The notes under the pieces were generated by a model, which made no database searches, had not been told where the DNA came from, and worked only from the letters and a program-made list of their open reading frames with translations. Source: Synechococcus sp. JA-2-3B'a(2-13) (lineage in GTDB: Bacteria; Cyanobacteriota; Cyanobacteriia; Thermostichales; Thermostichaceae). From it: a DNA stretch of 64,000 nucleotides. The stretch spans positions 825,277 to 889,276 of the forward strand of contig NC_007776.1 of the NCBI RefSeq assembly GCF_000013225.1, read 5' to 3'. This document shows positions 5,383 to 56,195 of the stretch, in pieces (the stretch's first letter is position 1; every line of letters starts with the position of its first letter). Position numbers and translations under genes: made by a program.

Positions 5383-5419
5383 CAACCGACCCTCTAGACA
5401 ACAGAACACAGACAGGGGC

Positions 5420-5617
5420 TTAGAGCACCTCCAGTTCACTCTCGAAAAACCAATGTCGAGAGCGATCGGGAAACTCCAGAATGTAGCCGACACCGCTGCC
5501 ATCGACCACACGCCGTGCCAGCACCACAGCCTCTTTGCCCACCAGAGCGCTGAGGTTTTCTTGTCCGCGATCCTGGACAGAGCGAACTTTGACCTTATTT
5601 CCAACCTTGATCGCCAT
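5420..5617 (-). CDS. petP: Cytochrome b6f complex subunit PetP (DUF2862)
   Basis: A 65-residue protein from the ATG at 5617; an upstream TTG at 5644 would add nine residues. The text KVGNKVKVRSVQDR, a LVGKEAVVLARRVVDGSGVGYILEF core and the terminal WFFESELEVL match the SH3-like DUF2862 family. The Synechocystis member has been described as PetP, a peripheral subunit of cytochrome b6f on the stromal face that affects electron transport. It is the first gene of an apparent petP-HU-cryptochrome series on the minus strand. The assignment rests on overall pattern and size. Confidence 0.8.
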   Translation of the reverse strand: MAIKVGNKVKVRSVQDRGQENLSALVGKEAVVLARRVVDGSGVGYILEFPDRSRHWFFESELEVL

Positions 5618-17441: not shown

Positions 17442-18668
17442 CTATATCCCGCGAGCAAGGATGTTGATGGCACCGACCAGAAAGGCCTCCGGCCCGCTGC
17501 CGCGAAAGGCCTCCGGCCCGCTGCCGCGAAAGGCCTCCGGCCCGCTGCCGCGAAAGGCCTCCGGCCCGCTGCCGCGATCGGCGTTATTCTCATAGCCGCA
17601 CGCCACGCACTCGAACCAGGCTTGGGTCTGGCGGTTGTCTGATGAAACATGGCCGCAACATGGACAGGTGCGGCTCGGGTTCTGCGGCGGCACGACAATG
17701 AGCCTGCCACCTTTCCAGGCCAGCTTGTACTCCAGCATGCAGCGGAACTCATACCACCCCTGGTCGAGAATGGCTTTGTTTAACGCTGACTTGGCGCGGA
17801 CGTTCTTCCCAGGAGCATCTGCCGTCCCTGCCGCCAACTTGGACATATTCCGCACCCGCAAGTCCTCGATGCACACGATTGCCTGGCTTTTGCTAATCGC
17901 GGTCGAGACCTTGTGCAGGAAGTCGCGGCGGGCGTTGGCCATCTGAGAATGAATACGCTGGAGGCGGGCTTTTGCCTTCTTCCAGTTGTTGCTGAACTTG
18001 ACTTTGCGGGAGAGCGCTTGCTGGGCCTTGCGCAAGCGCGCCTCGTGCCGCTTGAAGCTGTTGAGGGGCGCGTAGAACGTGCCGTCCGAGAGGGTAGCCA
18101 AGCGGGCAATGCCCATGTCCATGCCCACTGCGCCCCCCTGCGGAATAGGCCGATCAACCTCCCGCTCGGTCTGGATCGACACGAACCACTTGCCAGCGTG
18201 CTTGGATACGGTGACGCTCTTGACCTTGCCCACCACGTCGCGGCTGTTGCGGTAGCGCAGCCAGCCAAGTTTGGGCAGAAAGATGCGGCTGTTGGCCTGG
18301 TCCAGCTGGATTTGCTTGGGCGCGGGATAACGGAAACTGTCCGACCGGCCTTTTTTCTTGAACTTCGGGAAGCCGGCGCGCTGGGCGAAGAAGTGGCTGT
18401 AGGCTCGCTCCAAATCCTTGAGTGCCTGTTGCAGCGGATGCACCGGCGCATCCGCCAGCCACGCTGTATCTGCGCTGTGGCGCCACGCGGTGAGCAGCTG
18501 GCACAAGCCCGCATAGCCTAGCTTTTTCTGGCCTTGCTCGTGACGCTCCTTCTGCAACGCCAGTGCTTTGTTGTAGAGGAACCGGCAGGAGCCAGCAAAG
18601 CGGCGCATCTGCCGTTCCTGCTGGCTGTTGGGCAGCAATTCGTACTTGAAGGCTTGAAGTCGTTGCAC
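17442..18668 (-). CDS. tnpB: TnpB RNA-guided nuclease with a tandem-repeat insertion in RuvC-III
   Basis: A 408-residue protein of the TnpB/Fanzor/Cas12 ancestor family. YELLPNSQQERQMRRFAGSC is the helix-turn-helix start. The RuvC-I Asp is in AVGMDMGIARL (about residue 183), the RuvC-II Glu in IVCIEDLRVRN (about 270), and a zinc finger follows (CPCCGH and CVACGY). The RuvC-III Asp is in ENNAD (about 364). Immediately after that Asp, four copies of the octapeptide GSGPEAFR interrupt what would otherwise read NADLVGAINILARG, the normal motif. The frame is kept, but the Asp is moved away from its helix by 32 residues, so nuclease activity is doubtful. Confidence 0.9.
   Translation of the reverse strand: MQRLQAFKYELLPNSQQERQMRRFAGSCRFLYNKALALQKERHEQGQKKLGYAGLCQLLTAWRHSADTAWLADAPVHPLQQALKDLERAYSHFFAQRAGFPKFKKKGRSDSFRYPAPKQIQLDQANSRIFLPKLGWLRYRNSRDVVGKVKSVTVSKHAGKWFVSIQTEREVDRPIPQGGAVGMDMGIARLATLSDGTFYAPLNSFKRHEARLRKAQQALSRKVKFSNNWKKAKARLQRIHSQMANARRDFLHKVSTAISKSQAIVCIEDLRVRNMSKLAAGTADAPGKNVRAKSALNKAILDQGWYEFRCMLEYKLAWKGGRLIVVPPQNPSRTCPCCGHVSSDNRQTQAWFECVACGYENNADRGSGPEAFRGSGPEAFRGSGPEAFRGSGPEAFLVGAINILARGI
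17482..17577 (+). repeat. Four tandem copies of the 24-base double-hairpin element, GGCC variant
   Basis: Copies begin at 17482, 17506, 17530 and 17554 and are identical: AAGGCC-TCC-GGCC followed by CGCTGCCGCGA. The 96 bases keep the tnpB frame. Confidence 0.95.
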
Positions 18669-40761: not shown

Positions 40762-41909
40762 GTTTCCAATTCTATAGATCCCCCCGAAGGAAAAACCCCG
40801 CCTTATTGGCGGGGGATTTTTTGTGGCTATAGGGTTTCCAATTTCTAGGGATCCCCCCGAAGGGGGAACAGCTTCGATCCAGCTCACGAGAGCGAGGATA
40901 CGAGCAACATGTTTCCAATTTCTAGGGATCCCCCCGAAGGGGGAACGGAGTTGGAATGGCAACGCAGGCTAGCAGGGTGTCAAGTTTCCAATTTCTAGGG
41001 ATCCCCCCGAAGGGGGAACGGAGTTGGAATGGCAACGCAGGCTAGCAGGGTGTCAAGTTTCCAATTTCTAGGGATCCCCCCGAAGGGGGAACACATATTG
41101 GCGGCAGGGCTTGCCGACCTTAATGGGCAGCGTTTCCAATTTCTAGGGATCCCCCCGAAGGGGGAACGATATAGGCATGATTTCTTCCTAAGATAGGAAA
41201 GTTTCCAATTTCTAGGGATCCCCCCGAAGGGGGAACGTTCCATATCAACTCCTCCCTTATCGGGGAATAAAGAACAGTTTCCAATTTCTAGGGATCCCCC
41301 CGAAGGGGGAACACCCAGCGTTACAGGCCTTTTCCACGGCTGCTGCCGCTGTTTCCAATTTCTAGGGATCCCCCCGAAGGGGGAACATGGTACTGGCAAA
41401 CCTGGAACGGTTTGCCAATCAAGTTTCCAATTTCTAGGGATCCCCCCGAAGGGGGAACCCAAGCGAAAGGTGCCGAGGAACTCTCAGAAGTGGACGTTTC
41501 CAATTTCTAGGGATCCCCCCGAAGGGGGAACCTACCAACCTGGGTACCCGCGCTCCCGGAGACTCAACCGTGTTTCCAATTTCTAGGGATCCCCCCGAAG
41601 GGGGAACTCGGTGTACCAGGTCACAATTTTCCGTCACCTAGAAAGTTTCCAATTTCTAGGGATCCCCCCGAAGGGGGAACGGTCAGCTGGATAGAAGCTG
41701 GCCGGTTCATCCGATCTCGTTTCCAATTTCTAGGGATCCCCCCGAAGGGGGAACTTAATCGTCTACACTACATGATCCGGCTCCTCGTCACCGCACGGCA
41801 GTTTCCAATTTCTAGGGATCCCCCCAAAGGGGGAACGGGGGAGGTTGGTTGGGAGGTTGGTGGGAGTTAGACTGTTTCCAATTTCTAGGGATCCCCCCGA
41901 AGGGGGAAC
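40762..41909 (-). CRISPR. CRISPR array, 36-base repeats, 15 full copies plus a degenerate terminal copy
   Basis: In plus orientation each repeat starts GTTTCCAATTTC and ends GGGGGAAC. Read on the minus strand it ends ATTGGAAAC, like the 3' handle of type III repeats, so the array is taken to be transcribed on the minus strand from a leader at 41910-42160. Full repeats start at 40834, 40911, 40984, 41057, 41132, 41201, 41277, 41351, 41423, 41496, 41572, 41645, 41719, 41801 and 41874; the 14 spacers are 33-46 bases. Each repeat RNA can form five C-G pairs closed by a UUCG tetraloop. The repeat at 41801 has A for G in the loop region. Spacers 40947-40983 and 41020-41056 are identical. Distal copies at 40762 and 40729 are degenerate. 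Confidence 0.98.
40791..40822. terminator. Bidirectional intrinsic terminator at the distal end of the CRISPR array
   Basis: Stem CCCCGCC / GGCGGGG with loop TTATT, followed by GATTTTTT on the plus strand and preceded by AAAAA, which gives a U-run on the minus strand. It sits between a degenerate repeat (40762) and the first full repeat (40834) and can end both the CHAD mRNA and the array transcript. Confidence 0.85.
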
Positions 41910-43756: not shown

Positions 43757-45580
43757 CTACTTCAAGGGCCAGATTATTCCAAAATCATCAGCATTTTTCC
43801 TGAGCTGTTCAAGATAACTTTTCCTAGGATTCACCGTTGCCCTAAAAACGGTAACCACCTGATAGTCATCCAAATCTGCAATCCAAACAGGGGACGGCGT
43901 GCCTGTGTCGCCGCAGAGAAACTTGTCGTATTTTCCTGGCGCTATCTTGCCTACCTTGTGCAAAACAGCCAAAGCATAGGGCTTATTAAACTCTTCTGGG
44001 CCGCTGCAGACTACAATCCTGCAATGGGCATCCACAGCTTCAGGCAACTTTTCTTTGCCGACCTGACCAAAGCTCCTGGGATTGCTGGGATCAATGGCCT
44101 GCCCAGTCAAAACCTGGAGCGCCTCAAAAAAGCCCCGCAGCCGCTTCTGAAAGAGTTTCTGGAATTCCTCTACCGACTCTGGCAGATTCCAAAATGAATC
44201 TTCGGAGTTGGGAATGAGGGTGGATCCCCGCCACCAAGGAGCTCTACCGCGGTCTTGGCGAGAGTAGCAGGGCCTTCTTGCCCCCTGGCCAATACCTCCC
44301 AGGTGAAACAGCATCCAGGTCAGATTCCGAAAGAGCTTTTGCACCGCTTTCTGGTTCTCCTTTGAAGCATGGTTGTGGCACTCCTCAGAAAGGCTGAGAA
44401 TGAGGATCCCTTCTTGCCGTCCGGCACGCTTCCCCTTTCCCGCTTGGTTGGGTTCCGGCTCTGGTTGAGTTACTCGCCCCTTCAAAAGATCCACGTGGAT
44501 CCAGCCATGTTTTTGCTGGGGAGTGATGGCCCCAAAAAGTTGCCCCTCCCATTCCTGCACCTGCTTCACGGGCAAAACACCCAGGGCAAAGGTTCGAAAC
44601 CAGTAGCGCAGCATGTTCTTAAAGGCTACCGGTCGGACTTCGGCAATTGATTTGTTGTCATACCGGTTCTTATCAGGTCTCCAGTTGACCACTTGCCGCC
44701 CGTGGATCAACTGACCCTCCAGCTCAAAAGGCAGCCGCAAGAATTCTCCCTTGTATTGAGATAGAGTTTTGCCAGTTTGAATCAGCCGACCGTAGCCGGT
44801 ATTGACTTGGGATCCCACTCCTTGCTCCAGCCCGCGGATGAGCCATTCTTTCACTTGGGCTAACATCTCGTCGGTGCAGCCTGGGCCTTTGCGGATCCCG
44901 ATCAAAAACGTGGCCTGTTTGAGAGAAAAAAAGACATTGGGATTTGGGCTATATTTCAAGCTATTGCCATCCCAACTCCAAACGTTATTGGCAATATCAA
45001 CAGCCAAGCCTCCCGACCTGGAGTTATCGGGATCCCCTTGTCTTTGAGTCCTGGTCGGCACAGGGTAGGCATCCAAAAAGATCACCTTGCCAGCACTATC
45101 TTTGTCCTCAGCTTCTAGATGCCCAAGCCAGGGTGCCACTGCTTTATCTGCCTCCTCCCAAGACAGATTGTGCTTCTGCATCAACTCTCGAATAGCCTGG
45201 GCGCGGGCTACCCCCCGCAAGGTGGAGCTGGGAAGGTAAGGGATCCCTAAGGGATCGAAAGCGGGGAGCAGCATGCTCTCCGGGCCTTTGGCTCCACCCA
45301 CCCGAATTCGCCAGGGACAGGTGACCTGAAAAGTGTTTTTTTCTCCGGCAATGCGTTTGATGCGAGCATTCAGAACTTGAAGACGCGCTCCGTAGTTTGC
45401 CTTTGCTTCTGCCTGGTGCACCAGATCGACTTTGGCTCCGTCTTTGAAAGGAGTTGCTGGAGCCCTCATCCAACGCAGATATTCAATAAAGCTCGCTGTG
45501 GGATCTGGGCTGGGGTTGGGATCCAAGGGATGCCCTAGCCAGGGAGAAGGTTGGGAGTTGGCAGGACGATTGCTAGGCAT
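43757..45580 (-). CDS. Cmr6-Cmr1 fusion, type III-B effector RAMP protein
   Basis: A 607-residue protein, about twice the length of one RAMP subunit. Residues 1-275 fit Cmr6: LGIPYLPSSTLRGVARAQ (110-127), GKVIFLDAYPVP and the Gly-rich GVGSQVNTGYGRL (254-266). Residues about 285-607 fit Cmr1: RPVAFKNMLRYWFRTFALG (316-334), EGQLFGAI, LSEECHNH region, GGIGQGARRPCYS and PWWRGSTL. Cmr6 and Cmr1 are neighbours at the crRNA 3' end of the Cmr complex, so the fusion order suits the structure. The gene lies 30 bases after the Uma2 gene and 29 before the Csx18-like gene. Confidence 0.85.
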   Translation of the reverse strand: MPSNRPANSQPSPWLGHPLDPNPSPDPTASFIEYLRWMRAPATPFKDGAKVDLVHQAEAKANYGARLQVLNARIKRIAGEKNTFQVTCPWRIRVGGAKGPESMLLPAFDPLGIPYLPSSTLRGVARAQAIRELMQKHNLSWEEADKAVAPWLGHLEAEDKDSAGKVIFLDAYPVPTRTQRQGDPDNSRSGGLAVDIANNVWSWDGNSLKYSPNPNVFFSLKQATFLIGIRKGPGCTDEMLAQVKEWLIRGLEQGVGSQVNTGYGRLIQTGKTLSQYKGEFLRLPFELEGQLIHGRQVVNWRPDKNRYDNKSIAEVRPVAFKNMLRYWFRTFALGVLPVKQVQEWEGQLFGAITPQQKHGWIHVDLLKGRVTQPEPEPNQAGKGKRAGRQEGILILSLSEECHNHASKENQKAVQKLFRNLTWMLFHLGGIGQGARRPCYSRQDRGRAPWWRGSTLIPNSEDSFWNLPESVEEFQKLFQKRLRGFFEALQVLTGQAIDPSNPRSFGQVGKEKLPEAVDAHCRIVVCSGPEEFNKPYALAVLHKVGKIAPGKYDKFLCGDTGTPSPVWIADLDDYQVVTVFRATVNPRKSYLEQLRKNADDFGIIWPLK

Positions 45581-45610: not shown

Positions 45611-46252
45611 TTAGGAATTGCGAAGCGTTTCCCGAAATTCGCGCAACATAGCGCTGGTGCCAATTTCTAAGGCGCGTCGAATGAGTTGAGGCACAAGCCT
45701 GGGGATGTCGAAGTCTGGGAAAAGTCGGCTGCAGCTCGATTCTACGTAGTCTTCTCCCTGCAGAATAAATATCCGCAAACTTCGCTCACCCAAGAGCCAA
45801 ACTTCCGGCACGCCAATAGCTTTATAGGCATCGATAAAGGTCCGGGAAGTAACGTCGGACTCAATGGCCAGATCAGGCGGAGGCAACAGATCGACATCGA
45901 TCCTTCCCTCACACCCTCGCACCTGCTCTAGGTGATGGACATAGAAGCAGGTGTAAGGCTCCACCCCAGCACTACCAGACTTTTTAAGGCTTGTTGAGCC
46001 AAAGTCTTCCCAGTCTCTCCCTTGAGAATCGAGAATGGCTGAGACAATGTAGCCGGCAATGCGATGAGGGCGCTCGTGTTTGGATAAGGGAGACATAATC
46101 TCTAAAGTGCCGTTGTAATAGGCAACGCGAGTGTGGCGATCTTCGCCCAGCTCTTCCAGAATGCTCTCAAAGTCTTGCCAAGTCAGCGAATGGATAACCA
46201 CTTGGCTTCCTTCATACAGGGAAATAGACTGGATTGGAACAGCTACACTCAT
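45611..46252 (-). CDS. Uma2-family PD-(D/E)XK nuclease inside the cmr operon
   Basis: A 213-residue protein of the Uma2/DUF820 family, abundant in cyanobacteria. YYNGTLEIMSPLSKHE is the N-terminal motif; RIDVDLLPPPDLAIESDVTS holds the putative catalytic acids, and YKAIGVPEVWLL is the C-terminal signature. The usual Lys of the nuclease core is Arg here (SRTFIDAY). The ATG overlaps the cmr5 stop as TAATG, so it is translated with the complex. It may be an extra effector or a passenger; no CARF or other sensor domain is present. Confidence 0.85.
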   Translation of the reverse strand: MSVAVPIQSISLYEGSQVVIHSLTWQDFESILEELGEDRHTRVAYYNGTLEIMSPLSKHERPHRIAGYIVSAILDSQGRDWEDFGSTSLKKSGSAGVEPYTCFYVHHLEQVRGCEGRIDVDLLPPPDLAIESDVTSRTFIDAYKAIGVPEVWLLGERSLRIFILQGEDYVESSCSRLFPDFDIPRLVPQLIRRALEIGTSAMLREFRETLRNS

Positions 46253-54195: not shown

Positions 54196-54756
54196 CTATG
54201 GGCTAATGGCGAGACGGAAAAGCTTCTCATCGGCCAGTTGAAGAACTTCCTGCCCTGCAGCCGCCAGTTGTTCCGAGGGCAAGTTCTGGTATTTGTCAAT
54301 AAACTCGGGCAAAACTTGAAACTCCACCCGCTTGCCGGTCTCTCGGTGGATGACCACGCTGCGCATTTTTTCAAGAGATTCGACCTCCACCAGCTTCAAG
54401 TTCAACTTGCCCAAACTGGCCCCTGTTGCAGCATGCAAGCCATCCACAATGCACACGAACGGGATCTCTGCCGGCGACTCGTGAATGACCTCCACCAGAA
54501 AACGGTTCCTAGAAGTGTGGGGAGTTGGACTCATCAAGCCCAGCTCCTGCAGAGCGCGCATCCCCATGCGATAGCCGACCACGGCCCAAGGCCCAGCTCC
54601 GCCATGAATTTCCGTTACTCGCTGAATGGCCGCCGCCGTCGAGTCCGTTGCAGAACTGGTGACCGGATGAGCTGTCGCCGGCGCTCCCAGAGTTAGCTGA
54701 AGTGCAATCAGCAAAAGAGAAAGCTGCTGTGGCTTGGCAATGGATGACAGGTTCAT
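54196..54756 (-). CDS. Secreted FmdE-domain protein
   Basis: A 186-residue protein with a signal peptide (SLLLIALQLTLGAPATAHP). The domain IQRVTEIHGGAGPWAVVGYRMGMRAL matches FmdE, named after a subunit of formylmethanofuran dehydrogenase, and FVCIVDGLHAATGASLGKL contains the conserved region where the Cys and Asp/Gly of FmdE lie. In bacteria without methanofuran these proteins have an unknown, probably metal-related role. The gene stands alone. Confidence 0.75.
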   Translation of the reverse strand: MNLSSIAKPQQLSLLLIALQLTLGAPATAHPVTSSATDSTAAAIQRVTEIHGGAGPWAVVGYRMGMRALQELGLMSPTPHTSRNRFLVEVIHESPAEIPFVCIVDGLHAATGASLGKLNLKLVEVESLEKMRSVVIHRETGKRVEFQVLPEFIDKYQNLPSEQLAAAGQEVLQLADEKLFRLAISP

Positions 54757-54902
54757 AGGCAGCGAGAGAGCTGATAAAGAGGAGATGGGTCAAGCCATCA
54801 TAAGCTCTACCCTTCGAGGTTGCCTATGCGGGGGTAGGGGATCCAGCCCTCTTCTGGGAACTCTTCCGAAAATCACCTCCTGACTGAAGAGGGCTAAGAC
54901 CA

Positions 54903-55153
54903 GTGGTATTGTCAGAGGTAAGCCCCTGGGCGTTGAGCACAGGCCCCTGTAGGAGTAAGGGTAGTACTAGAGTACCGTGATTTTCCTCTGATTGCCGTAA
55001 GGCGTTGAGCACAGCCAGGATCCACCTTCCACTTTGAGGTTTACGGAGGGGTGATTTTCCTCTGATTGCCGTAAGGCGTTGAGCACGGGATGAAAAAAAG
55101 GATCCCGTATGGGATCCCTTGGAAGTGATTTTCCTCTGATTGCCGTAAGGCGT
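54903..55153. CRISPR. Orphan mini-array with a different 36-base repeat
   Basis: Two identical 36-base repeats (54977-55012 and 55051-55086) start GTGATTTTCCTCTGATTGCC and end GGCGTTGAGCAC. A third copy at 55125 matches for 29 bases and then diverges, and a degenerate one at about 54903-54940 keeps GTG and GGCGTTGAGCAC. Intervals are 36, 38 and 38 bases. The repeat is unrelated to the cmr-linked one. No cas gene of a matching type is adjacent. The loss of the 3' part in the last copy suggests a plus-strand orientation. Confidence 0.75.
55092..55120 (-). terminator. Intrinsic terminator of the S1-domain gene, lying inside a mini-array spacer
   Basis: On the minus strand GGATCCC-ATAC-GGGATCC is followed by seven T residues. 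It is 84 bases past the stop at 55204. The arms contain the GGGATCCC palindrome, and the whole hairpin is within the 38-base interval between two CRISPR-like repeats. Confidence 0.65.
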
Positions 55154-55203
55154 CTTGCTTTCCCTCTGCAGGTTTTGCATCCGAACTCGAGGCAGAGATG
55201 GGA

Positions 55204-56118
55204 TCAGATGACTTGGCCGTCGGATGTTATTCTCCCCTTGAGTTTACCGGCCCGCTCTTCGGCCTCCTCCATAACCCTGTCCAGCTGCTCCAGCACCTCG
55301 CCCGGATGCTTTTCCAGCACCCGCAGGGAGAGGGCCATCCGTCCCTTGGCCTCATCTACATCGATGACAACAGCTTTGATGCGTTGGCCTGGTTTGAACA
55401 AATCCGGTAGCGAGGCTACAAAACTTTGGCTGACCTGCTTGATGTGCAACAGCCCGGTTACCCCTTCTTCCAAGTCCACAAACACACCGAAGGGTTTTAG
55501 TCCGCTGACTTTGCCTTCCACCACTTGGCCACTGGTGTAGCGGCTCAGGTTCTCGGACTTTACAGCCGCCCTTTGGGAGAGCACCAGCTTGTTGGCTTCT
55601 GGGTTCACCTCGATAAAGCTTGCTGTCAAGGATTGCCCCACCAACTCCTCCAGACCTTCCCGTTGGCTGAGGTGGGAGCGGGGAATGAAGCCGCGCAGCC
55701 CCTGCACATCCACCACCACCCCCCCTTTGTTGGTGGCGATCACTGGAACGGTTACCGTCTGGCCGTTGGCTTGCTTCTGGGCCAGCTCTTCCCAAAGCCG
55801 CTTCAGCCTCAGCCGCCGCGCCGAGAGCACAATTTGTCCTTCTGCATCTTCCCGCAGGATGAGAAACTCGGCTTCTGTCTTTAAAGGAAAGAGCGCACTC
55901 AAATCTTCCCCTGGGCGGATCCCTGCTTCCTTGAGGGGCAAAAAGGCCGGGGATTTGCCGCCAATATCCACCAGAGCGCCATCGTTCTGATGTTGGAAGA
56001 TGCGGCCTTGCACCACCTGCCCCGGTTGAAAGCTGAGGTTTTGCTTGTCTAAAGCCTGGGCAAAATCTTCCGCGGAAAACGTATCGGCAGCCTGAGAGCG
56101 AGAAGAGCGAACGGTCAT
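55204..56118 (-). CDS. Protein with three S1 RNA-binding domains (ribosomal protein S1-like)
   Basis: The ATG at 56118 gives 304 residues (a TTG at 56130 is in frame). Three S1 domains are visible: GQVVQGRIFQHQNDGALVDI (about 30-100), a divergent second around VPVIATNKGGVVVDVQGLRG (about 125-195) and GQVVEGKVSGLKPFGVFVDL (about 205-280). Three domains and about 300 residues match the short cyanobacterial/chloroplast S1 proteins (Rps1 or Nbp1) involved in mRNA binding at the 30S subunit. Which paralogue this is cannot be told here. Confidence 0.88.
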   Translation of the reverse strand: MTVRSSRSQAADTFSAEDFAQALDKQNLSFQPGQVVQGRIFQHQNDGALVDIGGKSPAFLPLKEAGIRPGEDLSALFPLKTEAEFLILREDAEGQIVLSARRLRLKRLWEELAQKQANGQTVTVPVIATNKGGVVVDVQGLRGFIPRSHLSQREGLEELVGQSLTASFIEVNPEANKLVLSQRAAVKSENLSRYTSGQVVEGKVSGLKPFGVFVDLEEGVTGLLHIKQVSQSFVASLPDLFKPGQRIKAVVIDVDEAKGRMALSLRVLEKHPGEVLEQLDRVMEEAEERAGKLKGRITSDGQVI

Positions 56119-56195
56119 GGAAGGGCTCAATTCAAAAAGCAGTGGGTTTCAGGATAACCCAAAACTTGCCAGGGATCCCAGCTCCAGCCTCTGGC

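What the first reader, a model, noticed from the sequence alone, without database searches (positions are those of the whole stretch)
54903..55153. Orphan mini-array whose interval is a transcription terminator
Two perfect and two imperfect copies of a 36-base repeat, unrelated to the cmr repeat, lie downstream of the S1-domain gene. The interval 55087-55124 is not a random spacer: it forms the S1 gene's terminator (GGGATCC arms plus a T run). Either a relict array was built around an existing terminator, or the repeats spread by another route. The main array likewise has a terminator between its last two repeats.
Basis: partly seen in the sequence, partly recalled or inferred. Interest (0 to 1): 0.58.

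Follow-up and report, generated by a model that had tools for sequence, protein, structure and literature searches.

The report
Fossil CRISPR array with terminator-like spacer
This is the leftover tail of a bacterial immune-memory array whose partner genes were deleted, and its last memory slot happens to hold a stop signal of the host's own kind that could now end transcription of the neighbouring gene.

Summary
Window 54929-55160 carries a 12-nt stub, two perfect copies and one degenerate last copy of a 36-nt repeat, spaced 72/74/74 nt. The genome is Synechococcus JA-2-3B'a (OS-B'); this repeat is none of the three types published for it. In a sister genome (MAG M44_DOE_062) the same place beside the same S1 gene holds an intact subtype I-B (MYXAN) locus: cas genes, leader, 15 repeats, same degenerate last repeat. 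OS-B' has no leader match and no I-B cas7 or cas8; its left flank matches the sister to base 54925, three bases before the stub. So this is a deletion relict of a real CRISPR locus, not a dispersed repeat. The terminator-like interval has spacer length and phase, and no terminator was found after S1 in five of five relatives, so 'built around an existing terminator' is unsupported. The hairpin is a host-style pair of GGATCC palindromes, as after psbD and glnA. Most likely it is a spacer taken from host-type DNA that may now end S1 transcription; that last step is inferred.

The parts
54196..54756 (-). FmdE-domain gene, left neighbour, co-directional with the S1 gene
   Evidence: Pfam PF02663, E 4e-18
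54757..54925 (.). Left flank conserved in sister genome G004:C61, whose contig ends there
54926..54928 (.). Deletion junction (3 nt between conserved flank and repeat stub)
   Evidence: alignment; exact breakpoint inferred
54929..54940 (+). 3' stub (12 nt, GGCGTTGAGCAC) of a truncated repeat
   Evidence: exact, in phase; 12-mer found nowhere else in the window outside the array
54941..54976 (+). Interval 0, 36 nt spacer
   Evidence: 27 nt of it has no other match in 6 genus genomes at up to 3 mismatches; a 22-mer of it gave 0 in IMG/VR
54977..55012 (+). Perfect repeat 1
55013..55050 (+). Interval 1, 38 nt spacer
   Evidence: 35 nt of it has no other match in 6 genus genomes; a 22-mer of it gave 0 in IMG/VR
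55051..55086 (+). Perfect repeat 2
55087..55124 (+). Interval 2, 38 nt spacer holding two GGATCC palindromes
   Evidence: 35 nt of it has no other match in 6 genus genomes; the only 1 of 245 intervals with full GGGATCCC
55090..55120 (-). Intrinsic-terminator-like hairpin plus T run, S1 direction
55125..55160 (+). Trailer-end degenerate repeat (first 29 of 36 nt kept), same junction as in G004
55204..56130 (-). S1-domain gene (three S1 stretches); its region is 92% identical to G004 over 2.8 kb

Best explanation
This is the trailer end of a former subtype I-B (MYXAN-type) CRISPR-Cas locus between an FmdE-family gene and an S1-domain gene. One deletion removed the cas operon, leader and leader-side repeats. 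It joined the left flank (to 54925) to the last 12 nt of an internal repeat, leaving three spacers, two intact repeats and the degenerate last repeat. Without leader or I-B cas genes it should neither acquire spacers nor give immunity (inferred). Interval 2 was acquired as an ordinary spacer from host-type DNA that contained a GGATCC-pair terminator (inferred: protospacer not found). Because S1 is transcribed toward the array, that spacer now sits 83 nt after its stop as an intrinsic terminator. It may insulate the co-directional FmdE gene that the deletion brought next to S1 (inferred).
For: G004:C27 has the same repeat (35/36, differing only at base 1), 15 copies, the same last repeat end (GTAAGGCGTCTTGCTTTCCC) and the same S1 gene. 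Its cas genes score as Cas3b, Cas8a1/Csx13 MYXAN, Cas7b, Cas5b, Cas4-Cas1 fusion, Cas2b and Cas6 MYXAN. Genus-wide, I-B cas7 and cas8 are found in 3 of 6 genomes: G004, G002 (cas8 with 3 in-frame stops) and G003 (fragments plus one lone repeat); not in G000, G001, G005. Left flank homology runs to 54925. Interval lengths 36/38/38 fall in the 34-39 range of G004. Terminator; none in 5 of 5 relatives in about 500 nt after S1. GGATCC-pair terminator pattern at 9 distinct places in the genome against 0 for the reversed control, one 77 nt after psbD and one about 25 nt after glnA (gene names recalled from the protein sequence). Unmutated repeats argue against later mutation of the intervals.
Against: G004's contig C61 ends at the 54925 equivalent and C27 begins at cas6, so their adjacency in G004 is inferred. 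No protospacer was found for any interval. All 3 OS-B' repeats begin with G and all 15 G004 repeats with A, and no spacer is shared, so OS-B' did not simply lose part of a G004-like array; recombination or turnover is needed. Termination is predicted only.
Confidence: 0.75

Rival explanations
1. Plain fossil: the hairpin in interval 2 is a fortuitous spacer sequence and has no role in S1 termination.
For: Terminator-like intervals of similar score exist elsewhere: 7 of 169 intervals scored 16 or more and 3 of 169 (this one included) scored 20 or more. No S1 terminator was found in the relatives, so S1 may not need one.
Against: The site is strong (z -3.57), points the right way and matches the host's own terminator style.
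Confidence: 0.25
2. The terminator arose in place after the cas loss, by mutation or spread of GGGATCCC-type palindromes into a neutral spacer.
For: Both fully bounded intervals carry GGATCC, against 9 of 243 intervals elsewhere; 9.5% of random window 38-mers carry it.
Against: The 72 nt of the two full repeats are identical to each other and differ from G004's only at base 1, so many changes confined to the interval are unlikely.
Confidence: 0.1
3. The array formed around an existing S1 terminator.
For: Position and orientation fit S1.
Against: Interval has spacer length and phase; no terminator found after S1 in five of five relatives; the sister array has another last spacer at the same junction.
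Confidence: 0.04
4. A working orphan array served in trans by another Cas set in the genome.
For: Two repeats intact; other cas genes exist (Cmr proteins and Cas1 in the window).
Against: No leader match in the window, no I-B cas7/cas8, no other listed repeat type is similar.
Confidence: 0.04
5. A dispersed intergenic repeat, not CRISPR.
For: One lone copy upstream of the sigA-like gene at C1:2827389, shared in decayed form with G004.
Against: Arrays with cas genes in G004, G002 and G055; only one lone copy in 3.05 Mb.
Confidence: 0.01

Closest known systems
Intact subtype I-B (MYXAN) locus of Synechococcus MAG M44_DOE_062 (DVDX01000011.1)
   Same: Repeat 35/36, trailer repeat, junction and S1 neighbour
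   Different: It has cas genes, a leader and 14 spacers, none shared; its last spacer is not a terminator; repeat base 1 is A rather than G
Orphan arrays of Synechococcus OS-A/OS-B' (Heidelberg 2009, PMC2612747)
   Same: Arrays without adjacent cas genes in the same genome; also the single type III repeat left in OS-B' where OS-A has the locus
   Different: Different repeats; those type I and II arrays have a cas set of their type elsewhere in the genome, for this one none was found
MYXAN-column CRISPR repeats of Leptospira (PMC4758666 table)
   Same: Shared 3' half of the GCCGAAAGGCGTTGAGCA kind
   Different: Different 5' half; distant phylum
GGGATCCC high-frequency palindrome of OS-A/OS-B' (PMC4390886)
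   Same: Arms of the hairpin are this palindrome
   Different: That paper holds the words terminator and CRISPR 0 times

Membership tests
Relict CRISPR array of subtype I-B (MYXAN) | Regular repeats with unique spacers of near-constant length | tested here: met
   72/74/74 spacing; intervals 36/38/38
Relict CRISPR array of subtype I-B (MYXAN) | Same repeat in an array next to I-B cas genes elsewhere | tested here: met
   G004:C27; G002 and G055 have similar repeats with cas
Relict CRISPR array of subtype I-B (MYXAN) | Loss of cas genes and leader | tested here: met
   No I-B cas7/cas8 in own genome; no leader match in window
Relict CRISPR array of subtype I-B (MYXAN) | Spacers match mobile elements | tested here: inconclusive
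   0 exact hits in IMG/VR for three 22-mers; no phage match; three weak plasmid records, E 0.5
Published OS-A/OS-B' repeat types I, II, III | Repeat consensus | tested here: not met
   Table 1 of PMC2612747 holds no such repeat
Intrinsic (Rho-independent) terminator | GC-rich hairpin followed by T run downstream of a gene | tested here: met
Intrinsic (Rho-independent) terminator | RNA 3' ends at the T run | not testable with these tools
   No transcript data held
Working CRISPR immunity locus | Leader plus cognate cas genes | tested here: not met

The most novel reading that the evidence does not exclude
A CRISPR spacer captured from host-type DNA has been exapted as the working transcription terminator of a chromosomal gene, and this helped keep the array remnant after its cas genes were deleted.
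Probability: 0.25. Interest if true: 0.5.

Novelty: new member of a known kind. Interest (0 to 1): 0.3.

Why it matters
It adds a fourth repeat family to a much-studied hot-spring Synechococcus genome (not among the types of PMC2612747). It also shows graded decay of one I-B system across a genus: intact, with stop codons, fragments plus a lone repeat, mini-array only. If the terminator works, it is a concrete, easily tested example of spacer DNA reused as a regulatory part.

Tried and rejected
Trailer-end rule: I asked whether last intervals in general tend to be terminators. In the first set (11 arrays, 169 intervals; the set that suggested the idea) 3 of 11 last intervals against 4 of 158 others scored 16 or more (Fisher p 0.006, post hoc). 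In a fresh set of 7 OS-A arrays it was 1 of 7 against 0 of 73 (p 0.09; the one hit is a single-interval array). Folding energy over 17 arrays, 17 against 228 intervals, gave p 0.11. Not supported as a rule. The truncated interval 0 was not among the mini-array's intervals in these counts.

Protospacers: three IMG/VR exact scans of 22-mers, genus genomes at up to 3 mismatches, phages and plasmids gave nothing significant. A looser search for the hairpin with free loop found GGATCC-pair sequences in G002, G003 and G005 at 2-3 mismatches and weaker ones in G000, G004 and G005, none convincing as the source. An exact IMG/VR scan for part of the repeat gave 0.

Lone repeat upstream of sigA: present in OS-B' and, differently decayed, in G004; not visible in the aligned G002 sequence. 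Considered as a sign of dispersal; rejected because it is a single site in the genome.

Papers: searches for last-spacer terminators (0 papers; 4 papers, listing only), for the repeat letters (only PMC4758666), and for relict or exapted arrays (listings only). Any statement of absence from print is limited to these searches. Seen: PMC2612747, passages and parts 1 and 2 of 4 of section 4; passages of PMC5017753, PMC4477158, PMC4390886 and PMC4758666.

Failed scripts: locus missing from the file read, redone; time limit, redone with a simpler scan.

Full report
What is there. The finding lies in a 3,046,682-base genome at C1:825277-889276. Its main array starts where Heidelberg et al. 2009 (PMC2612747, Table 1) place OS-B' CRISPR-IIA (866,037), so the genome is Synechococcus JA-2-3B'a(2-13). 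Four copies of a 36-nt repeat were reported. Two are perfect (54977-55012, 55051-55086) and one, at 55125-55160, keeps its first 29 of 36 nt. The fourth is only a 12-nt 3' stub at 54929-54940, in exact phase, and that 12-mer occurs nowhere else in the window outside the array. The repeat is not one of the three types listed for OS-A and OS-B'. The same paper says that its metagenome search found no new CRISPRs.

What it came from. Among 59 genomes searched at up to 3 mismatches, 5 had the repeat, the own genome included. G004, named as MAG Synechococcus sp. M44_DOE_062, has 15 copies, a leader region and a full cas set: cas6, cas3, cas8 (MYXAN), cas7, cas5, cas4-cas1 fusion, cas2. Its last repeat carries the same altered end and runs into the same S1 gene. 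The alignment starts inside the array and continues 2.8 kb at 92%. In the other four genus members no array adjoins S1; homology begins at the gene's end.

How it was lost. The window's left flank aligns with G004:C61 up to 54925, where that contig ends. The repeat stub starts at 54929. The simplest reading is one deletion of cas genes, leader and leader-side repeats. No leader match exists in the window, and no I-B cas7 or cas8 in the genome. The genus shows other stages of decay. G002 has all seven cas genes and at least four repeats, but cas8 holds three in-frame stops. G003 has only a cas8 end, cas7 (interrupted), cas5 and one repeat. G007 (family level) has cas4-1, cas2, a leader match and one repeat on a short contig.

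Not a simple shortening. OS-B' repeats all begin with G (3 of 3) and G004 repeats with A (15 of 15), the last one included, and no spacer is shared. A crossover inside the conserved part of the last repeat, or long independent turnover, would explain this; it is inferred.

The terminator interval. On the S1 strand, interval 2 forms a 10-pair stem with a four-base loop and a T run. The stem starts 83 nt after the S1 stop. With the scan no site scored 15 or more in about 500 nt after S1 in G001-G005, 0 of 5 (start positions were approximate for G001, G002, G003 and G005). Its arms are the genome's own overrepresented palindrome GGGATCCC (88 in the window against 2.35 expected; described for both strains in PMC4390886). 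The pattern GGATCC-N3-10-GGATCC-N0-2-T5 occurs at 9 distinct places in the genome, this one included, with 0 for the reversed control. Two of the others lie just after genes that I recognise from their sequence as psbD and glnA. So this is a host-style terminator; the other six places were not looked at.

Spacer or older feature? Its length (38) and phase are those of a spacer. Among 245 intervals of 17 arrays it is the only one with a full GGGATCCC; 9 of 243 intervals outside this array carry GGATCC, against 9.5% of random window 38-mers. It therefore looks host-derived and unlike other spacers. The repeats beside it are unmutated, which argues against later creation in place. No source copy was found within 3 mismatches in six genus genomes.

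Function. Shown: anatomy, absence of I-B cas7/cas8 and leader, host-like terminator. Inferred: the array is dead; the spacer ends S1 transcription; it may shield the co-directional FmdE gene. The main array also has a terminator-like last interval, with T runs on both strands, but a test on fresh arrays did not support a general rule.

Verdict. An ordinary kind of object, a relict orphan array, with one unusual and testable detail.

Noticed in passing
G000:C1:2827389-2827418 (L005 about 5388-5422): Lone decayed I-B repeat upstream of a sigA-like gene (name recalled from sequence), shared with G004 in a differently decayed form.
   Followed up: partly
window 40762-40835: Main (type IIA) array: last repeat degenerate, last interval a terminator-like hairpin with T runs on both strands.
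   Followed up: yes
window 40908-41053: Two adjacent main-array units carry the same spacer (73-nt unit, 99% identical): a recent tandem duplication.
   Followed up: no
window 43757-45580: 607-aa protein matches Cmr6 and, more weakly, Cmr1 and Csm3 models: possible fused Cmr RAMP protein.
   Followed up: no
window 45611-46252: Gene between cmr genes matching PADLOC candidate defence family PDC-S17 (E 1e-32).
   Followed up: no
window 17480-17577: Perfect 24-bp tandem repeat, 4.1 copies.
   Followed up: no
genome-wide, 9 places: Pairs of the GGATCC palindrome followed by T runs look like a terminator style of this genome, after psbD and glnA among others.
   Followed up: partly
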